Part shown: piece after piece, positions 9,755 through 24,591 of the stretch
Numbering within the stretch: the first letter of the stretch is position 1
How the letters are laid out: each line of letters opens with the position of its first letter
Source: Actinotalea endophytica
Lineage (GTDB): Bacteria; Actinomycetota; Actinomycetes; Actinomycetales; Cellulomonadaceae
DNA length: 37,561 nucleotides
Direction: 5' to 3'
Assembly (NCBI RefSeq): GCF_025717005.1
Contig: NZ_JAOVZU010000016.1
Span: forward strand, 18,844-56,404
The notes under the pieces: generated by a model
The model's database searches: none
Told to the model about the DNA's origin: nothing
The model's input: the letters and a program-made list of their open reading frames with translations, nothing else
Made by a program: the position numbers and the translations under genes

Positions 9755-9815
9755 CCAGGCCTGCGACCATCGCCCGTTGCGCACCTGCTGCGCGCAGGGC
9801 AGGCTTACCTCAGAG

Positions 9816-9837
9816 AAACGGACTCGGGTGTCCGTTT
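9816..9837. promoter_or_regulatory. Perfect 8-bp inverted repeat, candidate TetR-type operator
   Basis: Arms AAACGGAC (9816-9823) and GTCCGTTT (9830-9837) are perfect reverse complements with a 6-nt spacer. They sit directly between the LLM gene and the GAGGAGG ribosome site (9842-9848) of the ketosteroid-dehydrogenase-like gene. A palindrome of this size and A/T-flanked GGAC/GTCC core is typical of TetR-family operators. No TetR gene is in the window, so the regulator would be encoded elsewhere. Confidence 0.5.
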
Positions 9838-9854
9838 TACTCGAGGAGGCCCCC

Positions 9855-11501
9855 ATGACCACGTTCGACCACACCTACGACGTCGTCGTCATCGGCTCCG
9901 GCGGCGGCGCGTTCGCCGCCGCACTCGGTGCCGCCGACTCCGGGCTCAGCGTCCTGATGCTCGAGTCCACCGACAAGTGGGGCGGCAACACCGCCATGTC
10001 CGGCGGCGGCCTGTGGCTGCCCAACAACCCGCTCATGCGCCGCGACCGCGCCGGGGACTCGCGCGACGAGGCGCTCACCTACATGGAGGAGACGATCGGT
10101 GACGTCGGCCGGGCGACGTCACCCGAGCGCAAGGAGGCGTTCGTCGACGGCATCGACGACCTGATCCTGACCGCCGAGAAGTACGGCATGCAGTTCTCCC
10201 GCGCCACCGACTACCCCGACTACTACCCCGAGCTGCCCGGCGGGAAGATCGGCCGCGCGATCGAGCACGTCCCGTTCGACAGCAAGCGGATCGGCGAGTG
10301 GTGGACGACCTGCCGCGCGCTGATGCCGCTGCCTGCGAAGACCGACGACGTGTGGCTGCTGGAGCGCGCGTGGTCGACGGCGGGCGGGTTCGCGCGCGGC
10401 GCGCAGTTCGCCGGCCGGGTCGTCGGTGGACTGGTGCGCGGCAAGCGGCTGGTCGGTATCGGCGGGGCGCTGGCAGGGTCGTTCCTGGACGTCGTGGTGC
10501 AGCAGCTCGGCGTGCCGTTGTGGCTCAGCTCGCCGGCCGAGGAGCTGATCGTCGAGGACGGCCGCGTGGTCGGAGTCCGCGCCCAGCACGAGGGTCGGCC
10601 CGTGACGATCGGCGCGACCCGCGGCGTCGTCCTGGCCGGCGGCGGCTTCGACCACAACAAGGACTGGCGGCAGAAGTACCACCACATCGACGGCGCACCG
10701 TCCGGCAGCCCCGGCAGCCTCGGCGGCCCGATCGCCATGGCGCAGGAGGTCGGCGCGGCGCTCGAGCTGATGGACGACGCGTGGTGGGGCGCGTCGACGA
10801 TGGCCCTGCCCGGTGCCGACCCCGGCTTCCTGGTCGGCGAGCGTTCGCTGCCCTACTCGATCATGATCGACGCGAAGGGCGACCGGTTCGCCAACGAGTC
10901 CGAGTCCTACGTCGATCTCGGGCATCACATGCTCGCGCACGACAAGGACGGCACGTACTGGCTGGTCGCCGACGTCCGCCACGCGCGCCGCTACCTGCGT
11001 AGCTGGGCGATGGACCCGCGCGCGTCCAAGGCGATGGCCGAGCGGGGCATCATCCGCAAGGCCGGCACGCTGGCCGAGCTCGCCCGGGCGATCGACGTCG
11101 AGCCCACCCGGCTGCAGGCCACCGTCGACCGGTTCAACGGCTTCGCGCGGACCGGCGTGGACGGCGACTTCGGCCGCGGCAACTCCGCGTACGACCGGTA
11201 CTACGGCGACCCGACCGTGCACCCGAACCCGAACCTCGGCCCGCTCGAGAAGGGCCCGTTCAGCGCGGTGCGCGTGGTGATCGGCGACCTGGGCACCAAG
11301 GGCGGCGTTCTCACCGACGCGGACGGCTGCGCGCTGCGCGAGGACGGCTCGGTGATCGAGGGCCTCTACGCGACGGGGAACAGCTCGGCGTCGGTCATGG
11401 GCCACACCTACCCGGGTCCCGGCTCGACCATCGGCCCGGCGACGGTGTTCGGCATGCGGGCGGCGCGGCACATCGCGCGGGAGGCGAAGGCTGCGGTCTG
11501 A
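9855..11501 (+). CDS. FAD-dependent dehydrogenase, 3-ketosteroid delta-1-dehydrogenase-like
   Basis: This 548-residue flavoprotein belongs to the succinate dehydrogenase/fumarate reductase flavoprotein superfamily, closest in motif to KstD. The FAD-binding GSGGGAFAAALGAA lies near residues 15-28, followed by the KWGGNTAMSGGGLWLPNN segment typical of KstD-like enzymes. An SDYYPE-like motif (DYPDYYPELPGG) lies near residue 120. The C-terminal FAD/substrate motif YPGPGSTIGPA has its Tyr at residue 519, equivalent to the catalytic Tyr/Gly pair of KstD. It would dehydrogenate a cyclic ketone or steroid ring. I chose ATG 9855 because GAGGAGG (9842-9848) precedes it. A candidate operator and a downstream hairpin frame the gene as its own unit. 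No other steroid-degradation genes are nearby. Confidence 0.85.
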   Translation: MTTFDHTYDVVVIGSGGGAFAAALGAADSGLSVLMLESTDKWGGNTAMSGGGLWLPNNPLMRRDRAGDSRDEALTYMEETIGDVGRATSPERKEAFVDGIDDLILTAEKYGMQFSRATDYPDYYPELPGGKIGRAIEHVPFDSKRIGEWWTTCRALMPLPAKTDDVWLLERAWSTAGGFARGAQFAGRVVGGLVRGKRLVGIGGALAGSFLDVVVQQLGVPLWLSSPAEELIVEDGRVVGVRAQHEGRPVTIGATRGVVLAGGGFDHNKDWRQKYHHIDGAPSGSPGSLGGPIAMAQEVGAALELMDDAWWGASTMALPGADPGFLVGERSLPYSIMIDAKGDRFANESESYVDLGHHMLAHDKDGTYWLVADVRHARRYLRSWAMDPRASKAMAERGIIRKAGTLAELARAIDVEPTRLQATVDRFNGFARTGVDGDFGRGNSAYDRYYGDPTVHPNPNLGPLEKGPFSAVRVVIGDLGTKGGVLTDADGCALREDGSVIEGLYATGNSSASVMGHTYPGPGSTIGPATVFGMRAARHIAREAKAAV

Positions 11502-11514
11502 CGGGGTGGCGGTA

Positions 11515-11543
11515 CGGCCCGGCGCGCCGTGCGCTCCGGGCCG
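11515..11543 (+). terminator. Hairpin after the KstD-like gene
   Basis: Arms CGGCCCGG (11515-11522) and CCGGGCCG (11536-11543) lie 14 nt after the stop. Inside the loop GCGC (11524-11527) can also pair with GCGC (11531-11534). It is a strong stem followed by GATTG but not by a real T-run. It is a likely rho-independent-like terminator. Confidence 0.5.
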
Positions 11544-11619
11544 GATTGCGGCATGGCACCCGAACGCGTCCACGGGTCCGGGTGACCTTGGCTCCCGGCT
11601 GGAGCGGTTCGCATCCACG

Positions 11620-11644
11620 CATGCATCCCAGAATGGGATGCATG
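11620..11644. promoter_or_regulatory. Operator of the toxin-antitoxin operon (11-bp arms)
   Basis: Perfect inverted repeat: CATGCATCCCA (11620-11630), spacer GAA, TGGGATGCATG (11634-11644). It ends 5 nt before the probable -10 element and 17 nt before the antitoxin ATG. A ribbon-helix-helix antitoxin binding here would cover the promoter, which fits the usual autoregulation of such operons. Confidence 0.65.
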
Positions 11645-11648
11645 TCGG

Positions 11649-11654
11649 TATGAT
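11649..11654 (+). promoter_or_regulatory. Probable -10 element, leaderless antitoxin mRNA
   Basis: TATGAT at 11649-11654 is followed by GTCGAC and then the ATG at 11661. Transcription would start about at the A of the ATG, so the mRNA would be leaderless. This agrees with the absence of a ribosome binding site. No good -35 is visible because the operator occupies that region. Confidence 0.5.
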
Positions 11655-11660
11655 GTCGAC

Positions 11661-11894
11661 ATGAGCACGCAGATCGCGGTCCGGCTTCCCGACGAGATGG
11701 TGGCCTTCCTCGACCGCGAGGTCGCCGAAGGCAGGGCGCCGAGCCGCGCCGCGCTCGTCGCATCGGCGGTGGAACGCGAGATGCGCCGGCTCCTGGCGGA
11801 GCACGACTCCCAGACGCTCCGGCGTCAGGGGCCGGCCGACGACCTGGACGACCTCGTCCGGTGGACGACGACCCACGTCGAGCTCGGAGACTGA
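11661..11894 (+). CDS. Ribbon-helix-helix antitoxin (MazE-like)
   Basis: This 77-residue protein has an N-terminal ribbon-helix-helix DNA-binding motif: the strand TQIAVRLPDEMVAFLD (residues 3-18), then an RAPSRAALVASAVEREMRRL helix-turn-helix (about 24-44). The C-terminal part (LDDLVRWTTTHVELGD) is acidic and is expected to wrap the toxin. It binds its own operator and neutralises the following MazF-like toxin. The ATG at 11661 has no ribosome site but sits 6 nt after a -10 element, so leaderless translation is likely. The toxin gene begins 4 nt after its stop. Confidence 0.85.
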   Translation: MSTQIAVRLPDEMVAFLDREVAEGRAPSRAALVASAVEREMRRLLAEHDSQTLRRQGPADDLDDLVRWTTTHVELGD

Positions 11895-11897
11895 GCG

Positions 11898-12212
11898 GTG
11901 CGGGAGATCTGCCTGGTCCACCTGGACAAGACGCGACCAGCCCTGGTCCTGACCCGGCAAGCATCCCGGAGCGCGATGACCAAGGTCACGGTCGCGCCCG
12001 TCACCAGCACGGTCAAAGGACTGACCAGCGAGGTCCGGGTCGGCCCGGACAACGGCCTGGATCACGAGTGCGCGATCGCGCTCGACAACGTCGTCACCGT
12101 CCCGACCGCGCTGCTCGGCCGAACCGTCGGCTACCTCAGCGCCGCCCAGGAGCTCGAGCTGGCCCGAGCCGTCGTCCTGGCCTACGACCTGGAGCTGCCG
12201 CTCCTCGACTGA
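11898..12212 (+). CDS. MazF/PemK-family endoribonuclease toxin
   Basis: This 104-residue protein has the PemK/MazF fold signatures: an N-terminal ICLVHLDKTRPALVLTRQ (the family consensus is W.VDLDPT.G.E....RP.LVVS), the middle VTVAPVTSTVKGLTSEV (consensus V.V.P.TS......P.EV), then GLDHECAIALDNVVTVPTALLGRTVGYLS, which matches the C-terminal consensus (SVALLDQIRTVDKSRL...IG.L). It is a sequence-specific mRNA-cleaving toxin acting in the cytoplasm. The start is GTG 11898, 3 nt after the antitoxin stop, so translation is coupled. Glycine replaces some residues of the consensus, but the fold looks complete. Confidence 0.88.
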   Translation: MREICLVHLDKTRPALVLTRQASRSAMTKVTVAPVTSTVKGLTSEVRVGPDNGLDHECAIALDNVVTVPTALLGRTVGYLSAAQELELARAVVLAYDLELPLLD

Positions 12213-12272
12213 CGCCCGCGCGCCGCCCGGCAGCGGCACGAGCAGACGATCTCCGACCTCGGGCCGCGGACT

Positions 12273-12320
12273 CGAGGCAGGGTCTCCTGCCCGAGGCAGG
12301 GTCTCCTGCCCGAGGCAGGG
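12273..12320. repeat. 19-nt direct repeats, each forming a hairpin
   Basis: CGAGGCAGGGTCTCCTGCC occurs at 12273-12291 and again at 12292-12310, and a third partial copy begins at 12311. Each full copy contains GGCAGG/CCTGCC arms around GTCT, so the array folds into tandem hairpins. It lies 60 nt after the toxin stop. Confidence 0.7.
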
Positions 12321-12360
12321 GTTTCGGCGCGAGACAGAGGCCAAGACACCCCTACCTCGG
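12310..12360. terminator. 13-bp imperfect stem-loop between toxin and hybrid dehydrogenase genes
   Basis: CCGAGG-C-AGGGGT (12310-12322) pairs with ACCCCT-A-CCTCGG (12348-12360), with a single internal mismatch and a 25-nt loop. It overlaps the end of the 19-nt repeats, so alternative pairings are possible. It could terminate the toxin-antitoxin transcript or be part of a structured leader for the next gene. Confidence 0.45.
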
Positions 12361-12398
12361 CCTAGAACCCCTCGCTCGACGCCCGAGCGGTGACAACC

Positions 12399-12443
12399 AC
12401 GCCCGGGGGCACGCCGCTTGCGCACTTCGGCAGGCCCGGGCGT
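12399..12443 (+). promoter_or_regulatory. Second large stem-loop upstream of the hybrid dehydrogenase
   Basis: ACGCCCGGG (12399-12407) and CCCGGGCGT (12435-12443) are perfect 9-bp arms. Within the loop GCCG (12413-12416) can pair with CGGC (12428-12431). The rest of the 339-nt gap 12213-12551 holds no gene. The only sign of start signals is GGGGAGGTG at 12537-12545 before the ATG at 12552. The promoter is not obvious. Confidence 0.35.
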
Positions 12444-12551
12444 CGCGGCGCCGGCGAGCGCTCCTCCTGACCAAGGACAATCGGCCCTCGCCGCACCCGG
12501 CGCCGGGAATAGCCTGGAAGCGCTGCGCACCTCGTCGGGGAGGTGGGGACC

Positions 12552-14810
12552 ATGTCGGCAGCGCCCCTCTCGGATCGTCCGCACGTCGTGGTGATCGGGG
12601 GTGGGGGCACCGGCGGCGCGGTCGCGCACGACCTGGCCCTGCGGGGCATGCGGGTCACCGTGCTGGAGCGTGGCGAGATCACCTCCGGCACGACGGGACG
12701 CCACCACGGGCTGCTGCACAGCGGCGGTCGCTACGCGGTCTCCGACACCGAGTCGGCCGTGGAGTGCATCGAGGAGAACCGGATCCTGCGCCGGATCGCG
12801 CCCGGGTCGTTCGAGGAGAACGACGGCCTGTTCGCGGCGATCACCGACGAGGACATGGACTACCTGCCGCTGTTCGTCGACGGCTGCCGCGCGTGCGGCA
12901 TCCCGGCTGAGGTGCTCACCGGCGACGAGGCGCGCCGCCGCGAGCCCGGCCTGAGCGACGCCGTGCGGGCGGCCGTCCAGGTGCCCGACGGGACGATGGA
13001 CGCGATGCGGCTGCCGCTGCGGTTCTTCGCGACCGCGCAGGCGAACGGCGCGACGATCCGGCCGTGGACCGAGGTGGTCGGCCTGACCCGCACCGACGGC
13101 ACGGTCACCGGCGTGCTGCTGCGCGACGACCTGACCGGCGAGGAGGACGAGCTCGCCGCGGACCTCGTGGTCAACGCGGCCGGGCCGTGGGCCCAGCACG
13201 TGGCGGCGTTCGCCGGCGTCGAGGTGCCGTTGCGGTGCTCGCCCGGCGTGCTGGTCGCGGTGCGGGGCCGGCTGTGCGACATGGTGGTCAACCGCCTGCA
13301 CAAGTCCGGTGACGGCGACATCGTGCTGCCGCAGCGTGGGCTGTCCGTGATCGGCACGAGCTCGTGGGTGGTCGAGGACCCGGACGACCTGCACCTTCCG
13401 GTCGACCACGTGCACACCATGCTCCGGGAGGGCACCCGGCTGGTGCCCGCCGTTGCGGACGTCGAGGTGCGGGCCGCGTGGTCGGCGGTCCGGCCGCTGA
13501 TCGGCGACGCCGGCAGCACGACCGGCCGTGAGCTGTCCCGCACGTTCAAGTGCTTCGACCACGCCGAGCGGGACGGCGTCGAGGGCTTCGTGACGATCTC
13601 CGGCGGCAAGGCGACCACGCTGCGTGCGATGGCCGAGGCCACGGCGGACGTGGTGTGCACGCGGCTCGGGATCCTGGCCACCTGCCGGACCCGCGACACC
13701 CTCCTGCTGCCGCACACCGCGTACCGGACCGAGATCGACTCGCGCAGCGCCCGGAGCGGCCCCGCTGGCACCTCCCGCACGCCGCAGACCGCCGCGGACC
13801 GGACCGGCCGCCGGATGGCGCTCAGCGCGACAGCGACCGCACCGGCCCACCCCCAGCCCGCCGCTGCGGAGGTCGCGAGCGGTGCGGGGCCCGGTGGCGC
13901 GTCGACACCGAGCGGTGCAGGGCCCGGTGGCGCGTCGACACCGAGCGGTGCGGGGCCCGGTGGCGCGTCGACACCGAGCGGTGCAGGGCCCGGTGGCGCG
14001 TCGACACCGAGCGGTGCAGGCCAGGGCGCCGCAGCCGGGACGACGAGCGCGGCGCACGGCGCCGGCGTCCCGAGCGCCACGGAGCTGGTCCCGCGGATCC
14101 TGCGGGTGCAGCGGTGGAAGCCCGGCTGGGACCGCCCGGAGACCGTCGAGTACGACGTCGCGGTGGAACCCGGGACGACGGTGCTCGACGCGCTGCGCTC
14201 GGTGCGCTGGCACAGCGACCCGACGCTGATGCTGCGGCACTCGTGCTGCCACTCGTCGTGCGGGACCTGCGGGGTCCGGGTCAACGGCGCCGAGGTGCTC
14301 GGCTGCGTCACGCAGCTCGACGACCTGCCGGCCGGCCCGGTGACCGTGGCACCGCTGCTCAACGCACCGCTCGTGGGCGACCTCGTGGTGGACATGGCGC
14401 CGCTGAACGACGTGCTCGCGGAGATCGGCCGCCCGCTGATCCGGGTCAGCCGAGCCTCGGCCGCCGACCTGCCGACCCCGCTGCGCCTCGAGGACTGCGT
14501 GGAGTGCGGGCTGTGCGTGTCGGCCTGCCCGATCTGCGCGACCGACCCGTCCTACCTGGGGCCGGCCGCGCTCGGCGCCGCGTGGCGGCTGGTCGCCGAA
14601 CCCCGTGGGGCCGACCCGGGCTCGGTGCTCGACCTGGTCGACTCGCACGAGGGCTGCTGGCGGTGCCACCTGAGCTTCGCGTGCACCGAGGTCTGCCCCA
14701 CCGGGGCCGACCCGGGCGAGGGGATCATGCACCTGCGTGGTGCGCTGACTCGTCGGCAGCTCGCCGGGCCGGGACGCCGGCGCGAGCGGGCCGCCGCAGG
14801 ACGGGGGTGA
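12552..14810 (+). CDS. GlpA-type FAD dehydrogenase fused to SdhB-type iron-sulfur subunit
   Basis: This is a 752-residue fusion. Residues about 10-395 are a DAO-fold flavin domain strikingly like the anaerobic glycerol-3-phosphate dehydrogenase GlpA: Rossmann GGGGTG at 16-21, then TGRHHGLLHSGGRYAVSD (about 49-66), the VVNAAGPWAQH strand, and HAERDGVEGFVTISGGK near 340. The C-terminal [2Fe-2S] BFD domain of GlpA is absent. A disordered linker (about 396-510) includes four 11-residue repeats. Residues about 512-752 are a complete SdhB/FrdB subunit: [2Fe-2S] Cys565-x4-570-x2-573-x11-585; Cys649, 652, 655, 659-Pro; and Cys705-x5-711-x3-715-Pro for the [4Fe-4S] and [3Fe-4S] clusters. SdhC- and SdhD-like anchors follow. 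Electrons from FAD should reach quinone. ATG 12552 is chosen for GGGGAGGTG upstream. I infer the substrate is glycerol 3-phosphate or a similar 2-hydroxy acid. Confidence 0.9.
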   Translation: MSAAPLSDRPHVVVIGGGGTGGAVAHDLALRGMRVTVLERGEITSGTTGRHHGLLHSGGRYAVSDTESAVECIEENRILRRIAPGSFEENDGLFAAITDEDMDYLPLFVDGCRACGIPAEVLTGDEARRREPGLSDAVRAAVQVPDGTMDAMRLPLRFFATAQANGATIRPWTEVVGLTRTDGTVTGVLLRDDLTGEEDELAADLVVNAAGPWAQHVAAFAGVEVPLRCSPGVLVAVRGRLCDMVVNRLHKSGDGDIVLPQRGLSVIGTSSWVVEDPDDLHLPVDHVHTMLREGTRLVPAVADVEVRAAWSAVRPLIGDAGSTTGRELSRTFKCFDHAERDGVEGFVTISGGKATTLRAMAEATADVVCTRLGILATCRTRDTLLLPHTAYRTEIDSRSARSGPAGTSRTPQTAADRTGRRMALSATATAPAHPQPAAAEVASGAGPGGASTPSGAGPGGASTPSGAGPGGASTPSGAGPGGASTPSGAGQGAAAGTTSAAHGAGVPSATELVPRILRVQRWKPGWDRPETVEYDVAVEPGTTVLDALRSVRWHSDPTLMLRHSCCHSSCGTCGVRVNGAEVLGCVTQLDDLPAGPVTVAPLLNAPLVGDLVVDMAPLNDVLAEIGRPLIRVSRASAADLPTPLRLEDCVECGLCVSACPICATDPSYLGPAALGAAWRLVAEPRGADPGSVLDLVDSHEGCWRCHLSFACTEVCPTGADPGEGIMHLRGALTRRQLAGPGRRRERAAAGRG
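13878..14009 (+). repeat. Four in-frame 33-nt tandem repeats in the linker
   Basis: Units at 13878-13910, 13911-13943, 13944-13976 and 13977-14009 encode SGAGPGGASTP four times, and a partial fifth unit starts at 14010. The only difference is one base, GCG versus GCA in the third codon, alternating GCG/GCA/GCG/GCA. This means a 66-nt pair was duplicated recently. The unit length is a multiple of three, so copy-number change keeps the reading frame. Confidence 0.95.
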
Positions 14811-14814
14811 CCCG

Positions 14815-15213
14815 ATGACCGTGCGCAACGACCGGACGGCCAACCGAGGCGGCGTCCGCGGCTGGCTGGCCCGACCCGGCGGCGGGCCCGGGACGTGGGC
14901 GTTCCTCGCCAACCGGGTCTCCGCACTCGTGCTGGTCGGCTACCTGTTCCTGCACCTGGGGGTGCTGTCCCTGCTGGCTCGCGGCCCGGCCTCCTGGGAG
15001 ACCTTCCTCTCGCTGGCCGGCCACCCCGCGTTCATCGCGGTCGACCTGGTGCTCTTCGCCGCGGTGCTGTGGCACGCGGCCAACGGCGTCCGGGTCGCGG
15101 CCGTGGGAACCGGGCTGGCGGTGACCCGGCAGCGGGTCCTGGCGGCGTGGGCCGTCGTGGCCTGCGTCGTGGTGCTGGTGGCCGCGGGCGTCCTGCTGCT
15201 CGGGGAGGTGTGA
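14815..15213 (+). CDS. SdhC-like cytochrome b membrane anchor of the hybrid dehydrogenase
   Basis: This 132-residue protein has three membrane helices at about residues 30-55, 72-93 and 105-130. Asn33-Arg34-Val35-Ser36 at the start of helix 1 corresponds to the HRxSG quinone-site motif of SdhC. His47 in helix 1 and His87 in WHAANGVR of helix 2 match the heme-b ligand positions (the family reads FHxxNGIRHL). It anchors the iron-sulfur domain to the cytoplasmic membrane and forms part of the quinone site. The start is ATG 14815, 4 nt after the upstream stop, which makes coupling likely. The next gene starts 3 nt after its end. Confidence 0.85.
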   Translation: MTVRNDRTANRGGVRGWLARPGGGPGTWAFLANRVSALVLVGYLFLHLGVLSLLARGPASWETFLSLAGHPAFIAVDLVLFAAVLWHAANGVRVAAVGTGLAVTRQRVLAAWAVVACVVVLVAAGVLLLGEV

Positions 15214-15216
15214 GCG

Positions 15217-15681
15217 ATGAGCGTCGACCTGCGCGGCTGGAAGGAGATCCGGCGCCACCCCGAGGCACCCGAGGACCTCAAGCACCCGCAGCACGACGGG
15301 CGCGGGCCCGCCCACGCGTCCCCGCCGGCCCACCGCTCGACCGGTGGCGGCTGGGGCTGGATCCTGCAGGTGGTCACCGGCGCGGCGCTGCTGGTGCTCG
15401 TGGTCGTGCACCTCGTCGCGCAGCACTTCGTGGTCGACGCCCCCGGCGGGCTGCGCGACTACGAGTCGGTGCTCGACTACCTCGGCAACCCGGTGCTGCT
15501 GACCGTGGAGATCCTGTTCCTGGTCGCCGTGGTCTGGCACGCGATGCTCGGGCTGCGCTCGATCCTGCTGGACCTCGGGCTCGGCGCGACCGGCCGCCGG
15601 CGGGTGACGATCGGGGTGAGCGTGCTCGGTTCGGCGACCCTCGCCTACGGCGTCGGGCTGCTCGTGGTGCTCGTGACGTAG
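15217..15681 (+). CDS. SdhD-like cytochrome b membrane anchor of the hybrid dehydrogenase
   Basis: This 154-residue protein has a polar, His/Pro-rich N-terminus of about 45 residues, then three membrane helices (about 48-70, 93-113 and 128-152). His65 and His70 in helix 1 and His108 in the WHAMLGLRSILLD motif of helix 2 match SdhD heme-ligand positions; HAMLGLRxILLD is characteristic of actinobacterial SdhD. The two anchors together offer four or more membrane histidines, enough for two b hemes. The start is ATG 15217 with GGGGAGGTG at 15201-15209. It ends the operon and is followed by the convergent response regulator gene. Confidence 0.85.
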   Translation: MSVDLRGWKEIRRHPEAPEDLKHPQHDGRGPAHASPPAHRSTGGGWGWILQVVTGAALLVLVVVHLVAQHFVVDAPGGLRDYESVLDYLGNPVLLTVEILFLVAVVWHAMLGLRSILLDLGLGATGRRRVTIGVSVLGSATLAYGVGLLVVLVT

Positions 15682-21240: not shown

Positions 21241-22473
21241 TCAGCCTGTCGGGCGTCGCCGCCGGGCGAGCGCGTCGATCGTCACGGCGACCAGCAGCAC
21301 GACGGCCGTGACCACGTACTTCGCGGCTGCGCTGAACCCGAGCAGGCCCATGCCGTTGTCGATCGCGGCGATGACCAGCCCGCCGAGCACGCCGTGCAGC
21401 GCCTTGCCGCGCCCGCCGAACAGGCTCGTGCCGCCGATCACGGCGCCGGCCACGGCGTAGAGCACCAGGGTGCCGCCGTCCAGCGACGTGGAGATGGACC
21501 GCAGCCGGGACGCGTACACGATCCCGGCGATCCCGGCGGTCAGCGACGCGAGCATGAACGACAGCGTGCGGATCCGGGCGAGGCTGATGCCGGCTCGGCG
21601 TGCGGCCTCGGCGTTGCCGCCGACCGCGTAGACGTACAGACCGAACCGCCGTCGGCCGAGCAGGTACGCCCAGACCACCAGCACGGCCAGCACCAGGAGC
21701 ACGACCCACGGCAGGCCGTACACCGGCGCGAGCACGCCGCGGTCGACGTTGGCCAGCAGGATGAGTGCGGAGCCGCCGGCCAGGCTCGCGATGATCTTCG
21801 CGGCGCTCAGTGCGGCGGGTGGCGCCGCGAGGCCCGAGCTGCGGCGCCTGGCGTCCCGGCGCCAGATCACCACGCCGGAGACGCCCACCACCACGAGCAT
21901 GATCACCCAGCCGGCCAGCCGGGGCACGGTCGCGCTCGCGATCCCGGTCAGCACCGGGTCGGAGATCAGGATCGACCCGCCGTTGCCGAGCACGAACAGC
22001 ATGACGCCCTGCCAGAACAGCAGGCCGGCGAGGGTCACCACGAACGAGGGCAGCCCGATCCGGGTGATCAGCGTGCCTTGCAGCAGCCCGATCAGCGCCG
22101 TGATCACCAGGGCCGCCAGGATCGCCACCCACCACGGCCAGCCGAGCTGCGGTCGCGCGAGCCAGGCGAGGACGACCGCACCGATGCCGGCGACGAACCC
22201 GACCGACAGGTCGATCTCGCCGAGCAGCAGCACGAACACCTCGGCCATCCCGAGCAGCGCGAACACGGCCGCCTGGACCAGCAGGTTGATCAGGTTGCCG
22301 GGCGTGAGGAAGTGGCTGTCGAGTGCCTGGAAGAGGACCGAGACGAGGAGCAGGCCGCCCACGACGGGGAGTACCCCGGTCTCGCCGCCCTTGATCCGGC
22401 TCCAGGTCAGGCTCAGGTAGCTCCGGACGTCGCTGGTTCCCGTCGTCGGCGCGACGGCGGTGTCGGTGCTCAC
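21241..22473 (-). CDS. Sugar ABC transporter permease (XylH/RbsC type)
   Basis: This 410-residue protein has about ten or more membrane helices, of the BPD_transp_2 family that imports pentoses and other monosaccharides. Family features are LLGEIDLSVGFVAGIGAV near residue 95, with the ExDLS motif, and GNAEAARRAGISLARIRTLSFMLASL near 290, the loop that meets the ATPase. The C-terminus has GGTSLFGGRGKALHGVLGGLVIAAIDNGMGLLG, highly typical of XylH/RbsC. The start is GTG 22471-22473, overlapping the ATPase stop by 4 nt. The frame is open further upstream but only as a shadow of the ATPase gene. Confidence 0.94.
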   Translation of the reverse strand: MSTDTAVAPTTGTSDVRSYLSLTWSRIKGGETGVLPVVGGLLLVSVLFQALDSHFLTPGNLINLLVQAAVFALLGMAEVFVLLLGEIDLSVGFVAGIGAVVLAWLARPQLGWPWWVAILAALVITALIGLLQGTLITRIGLPSFVVTLAGLLFWQGVMLFVLGNGGSILISDPVLTGIASATVPRLAGWVIMLVVVGVSGVVIWRRDARRRSSGLAAPPAALSAAKIIASLAGGSALILLANVDRGVLAPVYGLPWVVLLVLAVLVVWAYLLGRRRFGLYVYAVGGNAEAARRAGISLARIRTLSFMLASLTAGIAGIVYASRLRSISTSLDGGTLVLYAVAGAVIGGTSLFGGRGKALHGVLGGLVIAAIDNGMGLLGFSAAAKYVVTAVVLLVAVTIDALARRRRPTG

Positions 22474-23255
22474 GAGCCCACCTCCCGGTCGGACGTGCCG
22501 GTGGTCATCAGGTCCACGACGATCCGCTGGTCGATCTGGTCGATCGGGCGGATGTCGACCATCCGGCCCTGGCGCATCACTGCGACCCGGTCGGCGACCT
22601 GGAACACGTCGGTCATGTTGTGCGAGATGAGGAGGACGCCGTGGCCACGTTCCGCGAGCCGCCGGACGAGGTCGAGCACCATGCGGGTCTGCGCGACGCC
22701 GAGCGCCGCGGTCGGCTCGTCCATGATCACGAGCTTCGACTCCCACAGCACGGCCTTGGCGATCGCGACGGACTGCCGCTGGCCGCCGGAGAGCGACGCC
22801 ACCGGCTGGCGGACCGAGCGCACGGTGGTCACCGCGAGCTCCTTCAGGGTCTCGGCGGCGGCCTGCTCCATCGACACGTCGTCGAGCTGCCCGCGGCGCA
22901 GCCGCTCGCGGCCGAGGAACATGTTCTGCACGATGTCGAGGTTGTCGCACAAGGCGAGGTCCTGGTACACCGTCTGGATGCCCAGGGCCGCGGCGTCAGC
23001 CGGGCCGTGCAGACGGGCCTGCTGACCCTCCCAGAAGAGCTCGCCGGAGTCCGGGGGATGGATCCCGGCGACGCACTTGATCAGTGTCGACTTGCCGGCC
23101 CCGTTGTCCCCGGCGAGCGCGGTGACCGCGCCGCCGGGGACGTCGAGGTCGACGTCGACGAGCGCCTGGACCGGACCGAACGACTTGGAGACCCCCCGCA
23201 GCCGCAGCAGCGGGGTCGCCGTCGAGTCCGGGGCGCTCGCAACGTCGGCGGACAT
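22470..23255 (-). CDS. Sugar ABC transporter ATP-binding protein, single domain
   Basis: This 261-residue cytoplasmic ATPase has Walker A GDNGAGKST near residue 49, a Q-loop IQTVYQDLALCDNLDIVQN, the signature LSGGQRQSVAIAKAV near 150 and Walker B LVIMDEPTAALG. It is closest to the first half of XylG/RbsA. The monosaccharide family usually has two fused ATPase domains of about 500 residues; this one has a single domain, as in FrcA-like systems, so it must act as a homodimer. The start is ATG 23253-23255. Its signal sits at the 3' end of the binding-protein gene, one base after that stop. Confidence 0.92.
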   Translation of the reverse strand: MSADVASAPDSTATPLLRLRGVSKSFGPVQALVDVDLDVPGGAVTALAGDNGAGKSTLIKCVAGIHPPDSGELFWEGQQARLHGPADAAALGIQTVYQDLALCDNLDIVQNMFLGRERLRRGQLDDVSMEQAAAETLKELAVTTVRSVRQPVASLSGGQRQSVAIAKAVLWESKLVIMDEPTAALGVAQTRMVLDLVRRLAERGHGVLLISHNMTDVFQVADRVAVMRQGRMVDIRPIDQIDQRIVVDLMTTGTSDREVGS

Positions 23256-23256
23256 C

Positions 23257-24489
23257 TCAGCTGATGCCCGCGTCGGTGCACGCCTGGGCGACGTCACCGG
23301 CACACAGGTCGGCGACCGTCACGGCGCCGTCCTTGACCACGGTGTCGGCCATGTTCGACGGGGTGACCCAGATCGGCGTGGTGTACACCGACGGGATGTC
23401 CGCGTTGAGCGTGGTGTCCGTCGTGGTCGAGTTCACCAGCGAGTCAGGCGGGGTCACGCCGGCGCGCAGGTAGATCGCCAGCGCCGCGGCCGCCTGGGCC
23501 TCGAGGTAGATCGGCTTGTAGACCGTGCCGCACTGGTAGCCGGTCAGCACGTTCTGCAGACCCGGCAGCGACGCGTCCTGGCCGGTGGTCGGGAACGTCT
23601 TGGCCGCGACCCCGTTGCTCTTCAGGATCGAGATCACCGCGTTGGCGTTGTCGTCGTTCGGGGTGATCGCAGCGTTGATCTCCGGGTGGGCGGTCAGCTG
23701 CTGCTCGAACGTCGTGGCAGCGGTCTGCGGGTCCCACGTACCGGCCGGCTCGGCGACCTTGGTGTACGTGCCGTTGTCGAACTCGGTCTTCAGGACGTCG
23801 GTGTAGCCCTGGGCGAACAGCGTGGCGTTGTTGTCCGTGGGGTCACCGTCCATGATCAGGACCTGCGGGCTCTGAACTCCCCAGTCCTGCACGCACTGCA
23901 CGAACCCCTGGCCGATGAGCGTGCCGACCTTCACGTTGTCGAAGCTCACGTAGTAGCGGTCCGCCGGCCCGCCGGTGACGAGACGGTCGTAGTCGATGAC
24001 CGCGACACCCGCGTCCTTGGCGGCGTTCTCGATCGCGGCACCACTGCCCGGGTCGAGCGGGTCGACGAGCAGCACCGAGGCGCCGGCGTTGATGTCCGCC
24101 TCGGCCTGGGTCTGCATCGTGGAGGCGCTGCCGTTCGCGTTGTCGATCTTGAACTGGTCGGCGCTGAGACCCGCGGCTTCGAAGGCCTGCTTCAGGTACG
24201 GCGCGTCGTACTGGACGTACCGCGTCGAGGTCGTGGTGTCGGGCAGCAGGACGCCGACCAGCCCGCTGCCCTGCGCGGCGAGGTCGGTCAGCTGCTTCAT
24301 CACGGAGAAGTCGGCGGTGAACGAGCCTGCGTCGATCGCGGGCGCGCTCGCCGACATCGACGGCGACTCGGACATCGACGACGAGGTCGAGGACGACGAG
24401 CCTCCGCTGCTCGATGAGCTGCACGCCGTGAGGGCCAGGCCTGAGACGGCGAGGACCGCCGCGGTGGAGACCAATCGGCGACGAGACAT
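23257..24489 (-). CDS. Sugar-binding lipoprotein of ABC importer (XylF-like)
   Basis: This 410-residue protein has an N-terminal lipoprotein signal (MSRRRLVSTAAVLAVSGLAL) with lipobox LTAC, giving lipidated Cys23, then a Ser-rich spacer (about 24-60) and a periplasmic-binding-protein type I domain. Characteristic stretches are GSGLVGVLLPDTTTSTRYVQYDAPYLKQAF, AEADINAGASVLLVDPLDPG, and ITPNDDNANAVISILKSNGV with TGQDASLPGLQNVLTGYQCGTVYK, as in D-xylose-binding XylF. It is expected to capture a pentose outside the cell for the downstream ATPase and permease. The start is ATG 24487-24489 with GGAGTG upstream. It is the first gene of the operon. Confidence 0.92.
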   Translation of the reverse strand: MSRRRLVSTAAVLAVSGLALTACSSSSSGGSSSSTSSSMSESPSMSASAPAIDAGSFTADFSVMKQLTDLAAQGSGLVGVLLPDTTTSTRYVQYDAPYLKQAFEAAGLSADQFKIDNANGSASTMQTQAEADINAGASVLLVDPLDPGSGAAIENAAKDAGVAVIDYDRLVTGGPADRYYVSFDNVKVGTLIGQGFVQCVQDWGVQSPQVLIMDGDPTDNNATLFAQGYTDVLKTEFDNGTYTKVAEPAGTWDPQTAATTFEQQLTAHPEINAAITPNDDNANAVISILKSNGVAAKTFPTTGQDASLPGLQNVLTGYQCGTVYKPIYLEAQAAAALAIYLRAGVTPPDSLVNSTTTDTTLNADIPSVYTTPIWVTPSNMADTVVKDGAVTVADLCAGDVAQACTDAGIS

Positions 24490-24591
24490 AAGCACTCCTT
24501 CCGGATGGCAGCCGCGATTGCGGCACATTCCATGCTCAGCCCGCGCCAAGGTTGTGGAGCCACCTTCGAGCACATTCCCACCACATTGTGA

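What the first reader, a model, noticed from the sequence alone, without database searches (positions are those of the whole stretch)
12552..15681. Complex II with its flavoprotein swapped: GlpA flavin domain fused to SdhB, with SdhC and SdhD anchors
Seen: the N-terminal ~395 residues carry GlpA-specific motifs (TGRHHGLLHSGGRYAVSD, HAERDGVEGFVTISGGK). The C-terminal ~240 residues carry the exact SdhB cysteine spacing for three clusters (Cys565/570/573/585; 649/652/655/659; 705/711/715). Two three-helix anchors with heme-type histidines follow at 4 and 3 nt. Known: GlpA normally works with GlpB and GlpC, and SdhB normally works with the SdhA flavoprotein, a different flavin fold. Inferred: a single-chain dehydrogenase that feeds electrons from a GlpA-type substrate through an SdhB relay into a cytochrome b quinone site. 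No glpF, glpK or regulator is adjacent, so the substrate could also be another 2-hydroxy compound.
Basis: partly seen in the sequence, partly recalled or inferred. Interest (0 to 1): 0.92.

Follow-up and report, generated by a model that had tools for sequence, protein, structure and literature searches.

The report
Single-chain glycerol-phosphate dehydrogenase with complex-II tail
In an actinobacterium the enzyme part that oxidises glycerol phosphate is fused to the electron-wiring part of respiratory complex II and followed by complex II's two membrane anchors, most likely making a membrane enzyme that sends electrons from glycerol phosphate straight into the respiratory chain.

Summary
One 752-codon frame (12552-14810) joins a GlpA-type flavin domain to a complete SdhB, followed at 4 and 3 nt by SdhC and SdhD. 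It is not an assembly error: five other actinobacterial assemblies carry the same fusion. In Chloroflexota and other Actinomycetota the parts are separate neighbouring genes glpA-sdhB-sdhC-sdhD, usually behind glycerol kinase (14 of 21 genomes; 15 of 18 further loci). That points to glycerol 3-phosphate as substrate. The GlpA lacks the C-terminal [2Fe-2S] domain of canonical GlpA; no GlpB passes cut-off in 27 genomes. Six recalled G3P-site residues, all 11 cluster cysteines and the four histidines matching the heme ligands of M. smegmatis Sdh2 are conserved. Best explanation: a G3P:menaquinone oxidoreductase, FAD to three Fe-S clusters to a diheme SdhCD anchor. GlpA-SdhBCD was already proposed from synteny in archaeal Thermofilum (PMC11962113). 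New here: the single-chain fusion, its bacterial spread and the diheme prediction. AlphaFold did not settle docking. The fused genomes lack glpK beside the fusion; this genome also has a GlpD-type enzyme and normal SDH.

The parts
12552..14810 (+). glpA-sdhB fusion gene, 752 aa (P0001)
   Evidence: single open frame; Pfam and NCBIfam domains
12552..13736 (+). GlpA-type FAD/G3P oxidoreductase domain (residues 1-395), without the C-terminal [2Fe-2S] domain of canonical GlpA
   Evidence: DAO 11-365; TIGR03377 positions 1-409 of 530; R60, Y61, R314, R330, K353, R358 invariant (the roles of the aligned GlpD residues are recalled)
13737..14084 (+). low-complexity linker (residues 396-511)
   Evidence: the stretch between window residues 400 and 511 corresponds to 23-54 residues in the five fused relatives and is not conserved; pLDDT < 50 at 404-507
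13876..14020 (+). 33-nt tandem repeat, 4.4 copies, coding GAGPGGASTPS units in the linker
14085..14807 (+). SdhB domain (residues 512-752)
   Evidence: Fer2_3, Fer4_8; TIGR00384 155.9 bits; 6lum_B E 3.7e-32
14244..14306 (+). [2Fe-2S] cysteines 565, 570, 573, 585
   Evidence: 27 of 27; cluster assignment from the known SdhB pattern (recalled)
14496..14528 (+). cysteines 649, 652, 655, 659 of the [4Fe-4S]/[3Fe-4S] module
   Evidence: 27 of 27; cluster assignment recalled
14664..14696 (+). cysteines 705, 711, 715 of the [3Fe-4S]/[4Fe-4S] module
   Evidence: 27 of 27; cluster assignment recalled
14815..15213 (+). sdhC, 132 aa anchor, heme-type histidines H47 and H87
   Evidence: Sdh_cyt 3.3e-12; both His 27 of 27; align to heme ligands His C47 and His C87 of M. 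smegmatis Sdh2
15217..15681 (+). sdhD, 154 aa anchor, heme-type histidines H65 and H108 (and invariant H70)
   Evidence: Sdh_cyt 1.9e-15; three His 24 of 24; H65 and H108 align to His D65 and His D107 of M. smegmatis Sdh2

Best explanation
The three genes encode a membrane-bound sn-glycerol-3-phosphate:quinone (most likely menaquinone) oxidoreductase. Shown by sequence: a GlpA-type FAD domain with the G3P site intact is on one chain, through a low-complexity linker, with an SdhB that has the ligands for [2Fe-2S], [4Fe-4S] and [3Fe-4S] clusters, and is encoded with SdhC and SdhD, which carry the four histidines of a diheme (type A) complex II anchor. Inferred: G3P is oxidised to dihydroxyacetone phosphate at the FAD on the cytoplasmic side. 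Electrons pass FAD to [2Fe-2S] to [4Fe-4S] to [3Fe-4S] to heme bP to heme bD to quinone. SdhB with SdhCD stands in for the lost GlpA [2Fe-2S] domain and for GlpB/GlpC. The fusion arose in the Cellulomonadaceae-type lineage from a widespread four-gene form. In this genome it adds to a GlpD-type enzyme and a normal SDH and does not replace them.
For: Domains and motifs. The same fusion in five other assemblies. Separate genes in the order glpA-sdhB-sdhC in 21 of 21 unfused loci that hold glpA and sdhB, with sdhD detected in 18 of 21; in L026, L027 and L030 SdhB is instead fused to SdhC. glpK within 1 kb upstream in 14 of 21 unfused genomes. L031 has a MIP channel, Dak1, Dak2, glycerol kinase, glpA, sdhB, sdhC, sdhD. 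No GlpB over cut-off in 27 of 27 genomes. Partner rule in a second sample: 18 of 28 short GlpA have sdhB next (18 of 20 at 50% identity or more); of 12 GlpA with the C-terminal domain none has sdhC or sdhD and 8 have glpB. GlpA and SdhB distances correlate, r 0.88 over 351 pairs. Six recalled G3P-site residues 25 of 25 to 27 of 27. Heme ligands. The model's flavin part matches GlpD/GlpO structures first.
Against: None of the six fused genomes has glpK near the fusion (0 of 6); in G000-G005 a GlpD-type match lies about 1.3 kb from glpK on another place (read in full only for G000), so the substrate of the fused form rests on homology. AlphaFold gave no confident relative placement of the two halves (pTM 0.65 and 0.61; cluster loops below pLDDT 50). 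GlpD H233, which I also looked at, is not kept (Asp in the window, Gln in E. coli GlpA). One short GlpA at 53% identity (L111) has no sdhB next to it, and short GlpA below 50% identity never does (0 of 8). sdhD was not detected in L015, L017 and L018 (in L018 the contig ends). Within the genus only 3 of 19 genomes, the own one included, have it. No expression or biochemical data.
Confidence: 0.82

Rival explanations
1. Same electron path but a different substrate in the fused form (another polyol phosphate, or a 2-hydroxy acid): the Cellulomonadaceae copy was freed by the GlpD-type enzyme and changed specificity.
For: No glpK next to the fusion in 6 of 6 fused genomes; the own genome has a GlpD-type enzyme, a MIP channel and glpK elsewhere. 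More distant short GlpA relatives sit beside other sugar genes (L081: an RpiB-type isomerase that also scores 182 bits with D-erythrulose-4-phosphate isomerase, cut-off 240, and a kinase only 23% identical to glycerol kinase).
Against: The six recalled G3P-site residues are identical to GlpD, GlpA and the glpK-linked relatives; 64-69% identity to most unfused relatives' GlpA (L033 45%).
Confidence: 0.13
2. The fusion or gene cluster is a decayed or inactive relic.
For: Patchy: 3 of 19 genomes of the genus; the genome already has a GlpD-type enzyme and SDH; repeat-expanded linker.
Against: All ligand residues kept; 72-74% identity to five fused relatives with conservation concentrated in the domains; third-position GC 0.965 and 0.946 in the two domains against 0.819 in the linker.
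Confidence: 0.04
3. The join is a sequencing or assembly artefact between two loci.
For: None found; the tandem repeat in the linker could slip in copy number only.
Against: Five other assemblies carry the join with different linkers, and unfused neighbours keep the same order.
Confidence: 0.01

Closest known systems
GlpA-SdhBCD of Thermofilum pendens and relatives (Archaea), proposed from synteny, PMC11962113
   Same: A GlpA followed by counterparts of SdhB, SdhC and SdhD, read as membrane anchoring and electron transfer (section 11 read in full).
   Different: Archaeal, and described as following genes, not as a fusion; [quoted passage not shown] I did not have Thermofilum sequences, so direct homology was not tested.
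Anaerobic GlpABC of E. coli
   Same: GlpA catalytic domain, 43% identity over the flavin part.
   Different: GlpA here lacks the C-terminal [2Fe-2S] domain; no GlpB over cut-off in 27 of 27 genomes; SdhB and SdhCD stand where GlpB and GlpC would.
Type A diheme complex II, M. smegmatis Sdh2 (6LUM, PMC7447783)
   Same: SdhB (E 3.7e-32); SdhC/SdhD with the four heme-ligand histidines at aligned positions.
   Different: No SdhA; the flavoprotein is of the GlpA/DAO family and is on the same chain as SdhB.
GlpD (aerobic G3P dehydrogenase, 2QCU/2R4E)
   Same: Flavin fold and six recalled G3P-site residues.
   Different: GlpD is monotopic (PMC11962113 passage) and has no Fe-S relay or cytochrome (recalled).

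Membership tests
FAD-dependent G3P dehydrogenase, GlpA branch | DAO-type FAD domain scoring with GlpA above GlpD/GlpO | tested here: met
   TIGR03377 452.2 bits against at most 97.9 for GlpD and 76.6 for GlpO models; below the whole-protein cut-off 552.8, the C-terminal part of the profile being unmatched
FAD-dependent G3P dehydrogenase, GlpA branch | G3P/DHAP-site residues | tested here: met
   R60, Y61, R314, R330, K353, R358 align with E. coli GlpD R54, Y55, R317, R332, K354, R359; H233 is not kept, nor is it in E. coli GlpA. Which GlpD residues bind substrate is recalled, not from a call
FAD-dependent G3P dehydrogenase, GlpA branch | G3P oxidation activity | not testable with these tools
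   -
GlpABC | GlpA C-terminal [2Fe-2S] domain | tested here: not met
   profile match ends at 409 of 530; alignment to E. coli GlpA ends there
GlpABC | GlpB partner | tested here: not met
   0 of 27 genomes over cut-off; 20 of 27 have weak hits of at most 68 profile positions at the N-terminal FAD motif
GlpABC | GlpC partner | not tested
   no genome-wide GlpC search was made; in the fusion the GlpC model covers only the Fe-S stretch (645-736, 33.5 bits)
Complex II (SQR/QFR) | SdhA-type flavoprotein | tested here: not met
   flavin part is DAO/GlpA; the genome's SdhA (TIGR01816 915.5 bits) lies on another contig beside SdhB and SdhC
Complex II (SQR/QFR) | SdhB with three clusters | tested here: met
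   TIGR00384 155.9 over cut-off 88; 11 Cys 27 of 27
Complex II type A | two anchors with two bis-histidine heme sites | tested here: met
   by sequence only: His pairs conserved and aligned to the M. smegmatis Sdh2 ligands; heme content itself not testable
GlpA-SdhBCD (Thermofilum) | glpA followed by sdhB, sdhC, sdhD | tested here: met
   this order in the window, with glpA and sdhB fused
GlpA-SdhBCD (Thermofilum) | sequence relationship to the archaeal proteins | not tested
   no archaeal sequence obtained
GlpA-SdhBCD as a physical complex | FAD within electron-transfer distance of [2Fe-2S] | tested here: inconclusive
   AlphaFold pTM 0.65 (P0001) and 0.61 (L010), cluster loops of low confidence, no coordinates or PAE returned

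The most novel reading that the evidence does not exclude
The enzyme is a G3P dehydrogenase that carries electrons across the membrane through a diheme cytochrome b to a quinone site on the outer side, so that G3P oxidation is coupled to the proton motive force (consuming it to pull the reaction forward, or running as a DHAP reductase under electron excess), with catalysis and relay on a single chain. I know of no described G3P dehydrogenase that does this.
Probability: 0.3. Interest if true: 0.8.

Novelty: new variant of a known kind. Interest (0 to 1): 0.62.

Why it matters
It shows the complex II relay (SdhB plus SdhCD) as a portable electron module that a different flavoprotein can plug into. 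The fusion is strong evidence that the GlpA and SdhB parts work together, which synteny alone could only suggest for archaea. It goes against the published generalisation that bacterial glpA consistently goes with glpB and glpC. It also offers a single-chain construct for testing where quinone is reduced in a diheme anchor when the substrate reaction is downhill.

Tried and rejected
Assembly artefact: rejected (five further assemblies). L009 ('Proteobacteria' MAG) carries an 82% identical GlpA part cut by the contig end and bears the same sample label (BP9) as L005; I take it as probable mis-binning and left it out of all counts, as with L021 and L024 (contig ends, no sdhB to judge). L034-L037 are other DAO proteins (25-32% identity) and were dropped. 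L015 looked fused in the table, but the longer frame lies over glpA in another reading frame; its genes are separate.

Docking: two AlphaFold runs gave no answer. The second model was not searched.

The anchor profiles A4 and A5 contained the E. coli and own SDH rows, so their PDB hits are partly circular. They were repeated without these rows (A7 and A8, 18 rows each, of the 24 SdhD and 27 SdhC at hand).

Literature: seven searches bear on whether this is in print; by listing only PMC11962113 was relevant. One search (GlpD site residues) returned nothing; one search found the M. smegmatis structure. Of PMC11962113 I saw sections 10 and 11 in full and passages of the rest; of PMC7447783 and PMC10238741 passages; the latter, a 2023 complex II review, does not contain the term glycerol-3-phosphate (0 occurrences). 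All others were seen as listing only. Most subscription journals are not in that library.
Full report
Observation. The frame 12552-14810 is uninterrupted and codes for 752 residues; a GGAGG-like ribosome site lies just upstream. Residues 11-365 are a DAO-type flavin domain whose best NCBIfam relative is GlpA; residues about 512-736 are a full SdhB. Two Sdh_cyt anchors follow at 4 and 3 nt. The linker is rich in Gly, Ala, Pro, Ser and Thr, with a 33-nt repeat in 4.4 copies.

Not an artefact. A scan of one genome per 84,980 species with six short exact peptide patterns returned 33 loci. I dropped four other flavoproteins (L034-L037) and three loci cut by contig ends before sdhB could be judged (L009, L021, L024). 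Of the remaining 26, five (L005, L006, L007, L008, L010) carry the same fusion with different linkers; 21 carry separate genes in the order glpA, sdhB, sdhC, with sdhD detected in 18 (not in L015, L017, L018). The five fused relatives are 72-74% identical to the window's protein, the linker differing in length and sequence. Three unfused loci (L026, L027, L030) instead fuse SdhB to SdhC. GlpA-SdhB in one lineage and SdhB-SdhC in another tie the parts together. Distances of the GlpA and SdhB parts correlate (r 0.88, 351 pairs; 0.91, 325 pairs, without L033), as expected for parts inherited together, though shared ancestry alone also raises this number.

What GlpA lost and what came instead. E. 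coli GlpA carries a C-terminal [2Fe-2S] domain; here the GlpA match stops at profile position 409 of 530, and the unfused relatives end there. No GlpB: 0 of 27 genomes over cut-off, with weak FAD-motif hits in 20. I did not search for GlpC genome-wide. I tested the link between the missing domain and the partner on a second sample from the phylum scans (26 of 246 Actinomycetota and 65 of 251 Chloroflexota genomes have a GlpA match at E 1e-90 or better). I fetched 40 stretches: all 30 short-GlpA hits of the two lists except two already in the first sample, and 10 full-length controls of about 63 by my count. Two of the 30 (L095, L113) proved to have the C-terminal domain and were counted with the controls. 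Of the 28 short GlpA, 18 are followed by sdhB. At 50% or more identity it is 18 of 20, one of the two misses (L097) being cut by the contig end and the other (L111) a real exception; below 50% it is 0 of 8 (two of them, L082 and L090, close to contig ends). Of the 12 with the C-terminal domain, none has sdhC or sdhD and 8 have glpB; eight of the 12 show weak sdhB hits (39-55 bits), by my reading the Fe-S part of a GlpC, which they overlap. So SdhBCD stands where the C-terminal domain plus GlpB and GlpC stand in the canonical enzyme.

Substrate. The relatives do: glpK lies within 1 kb upstream, same strand, in 14 of the 21 unfused genomes of the first sample (two of these glpK matches, G008 and G011, are partial; four of the other seven have glpA cut at a contig start) and in 15 of the 18 short-GlpA-plus-sdhB loci of the second. 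In L031 the order is MIP channel, Dak1, Dak2, glycerol kinase, glpA, sdhB, sdhC, a 160-codon frame without Pfam hit, sdhD. Against this, none of the six fused genomes has glpK near the fusion. The own genome has a GlpD-type enzyme (GlpD model NF008899 326 bits, cut-off 360), a MIP-family channel and glpK together on another contig, and a separate SDH set with SdhA (915.5 bits, cut-off 727), SdhB and SdhC over cut-off; its SdhD is named by position. Six residues that I recall as the G3P site of GlpD are all kept (25 of 25 to 27 of 27 rows); H233 of GlpD is not, nor is it in E. coli GlpA. I conclude that G3P is the substrate, with the fused branch supported by homology only.

Electron path. The SdhB part has every ligand for [2Fe-2S], [4Fe-4S] and [3Fe-4S] (27 of 27). 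The anchors keep SdhC H47 and H87 in 27 of 27 and SdhD H65, H70 and H108 in 24 of 24. In M. [quoted passage not shown] Profile alignments made without any SDH rows put the window's histidines at those positions (SdhC E 1e-21 to 6lum_C; SdhD E 9.6e-7 to 6lum_D, although the SdhD profile hits 6lum_C better, 8.2e-11). E. coli SdhC and SdhD lack the TM1 histidines; the own SDH anchors have them. A diheme anchor is therefore predicted, not shown. From recalled textbook potentials (DHAP/G3P about -190 mV, menaquinone about -74 mV) the reaction is downhill, unlike succinate to menaquinone, so a transmembrane path is not needed as driving force; why it is kept is an open question. Menaquinone as acceptor is inferred from the phylum, not tested.

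Structure. AlphaFold on P0001 with 48 rows gave mean pLDDT 72.5 and pTM 0.65, on L010 74.3 and 0.61; the linker and cluster-binding loops are low. The flavin part matches GlpD and GlpO structures first. The scores do not establish how the halves dock, and no coordinates were available to measure the FAD-cluster distance. This test remains inconclusive.

Distribution. In a sample of 39 genomes, 3 of 19 of the own genus (own included) have the short GlpA in a long frame; the other two have the same coordinates as the genomes of L006 and L010, the latter Actinotalea lenta, Cellulomonadaceae. None of six genomes from six other genera of the family has it. Of 501 plasmid records with a match none covers 80% of the fusion. 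In some searches I saw no further fusion. It thus looks lineage-specific and patchy, the four-gene form widespread. These are samples, not a census: the peptide scan finds close relatives only.

Compared with what is known. [quoted passage not shown] The present finding is a bacterial and partly fused version. I found no report of it in seven full-text searches of the open-licence library, which lacks most subscription journals.

Noticed in passing
L026:4629-5762, L027:9164-10291, L030:8134-9270: In three Chloroflexota loci SdhB is fused to SdhC in one frame (375-378 aa), a second kind of fusion in the same complex.
   Followed up: partly
L081, L084, L086, L094, L096, L108: A second group of short GlpA proteins (about 40-44% identity) without SdhBCD. 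In L081 it sits beside an RpiB-type isomerase, near in score to D-erythrulose-4-phosphate isomerase, and a sugar-kinase homologue, suggesting other polyol phosphates.
   Followed up: partly
L031:10736-11218: A 160-codon frame between sdhC and sdhD without Pfam hit; whether it is a gene is not known.
   Followed up: no
window 11898-12212: PemK/MazF-like protein (PF02452, E 1.1e-10) ends 339 nt upstream of the fusion; its antitoxin was not looked for.
   Followed up: no
window 9777-11501: FAD protein of the 3-ketosteroid delta-1-dehydrogenase type (NF009478, 587 bits, below cut-off 789).
   Followed up: no
window 21241-24573: ABC transporter genes (BPD_transp_2, ABC_tran, Peripla_BP_4) whose homologues (71-89% identity) lie upstream of the fusion in L006 and L010 although they are about 5.6 kb downstream of it here.
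   Followed up: partly
L009: MAG labelled Proteobacteria with an 82% identical GlpA part at a contig end, probably a mis-binned actinobacterial contig.
   Followed up: no
window 10119-14912, minus strand: A 1597-codon antisense open frame across the fusion, most likely a by-product of 74% GC rather than a gene.
   Followed up: no
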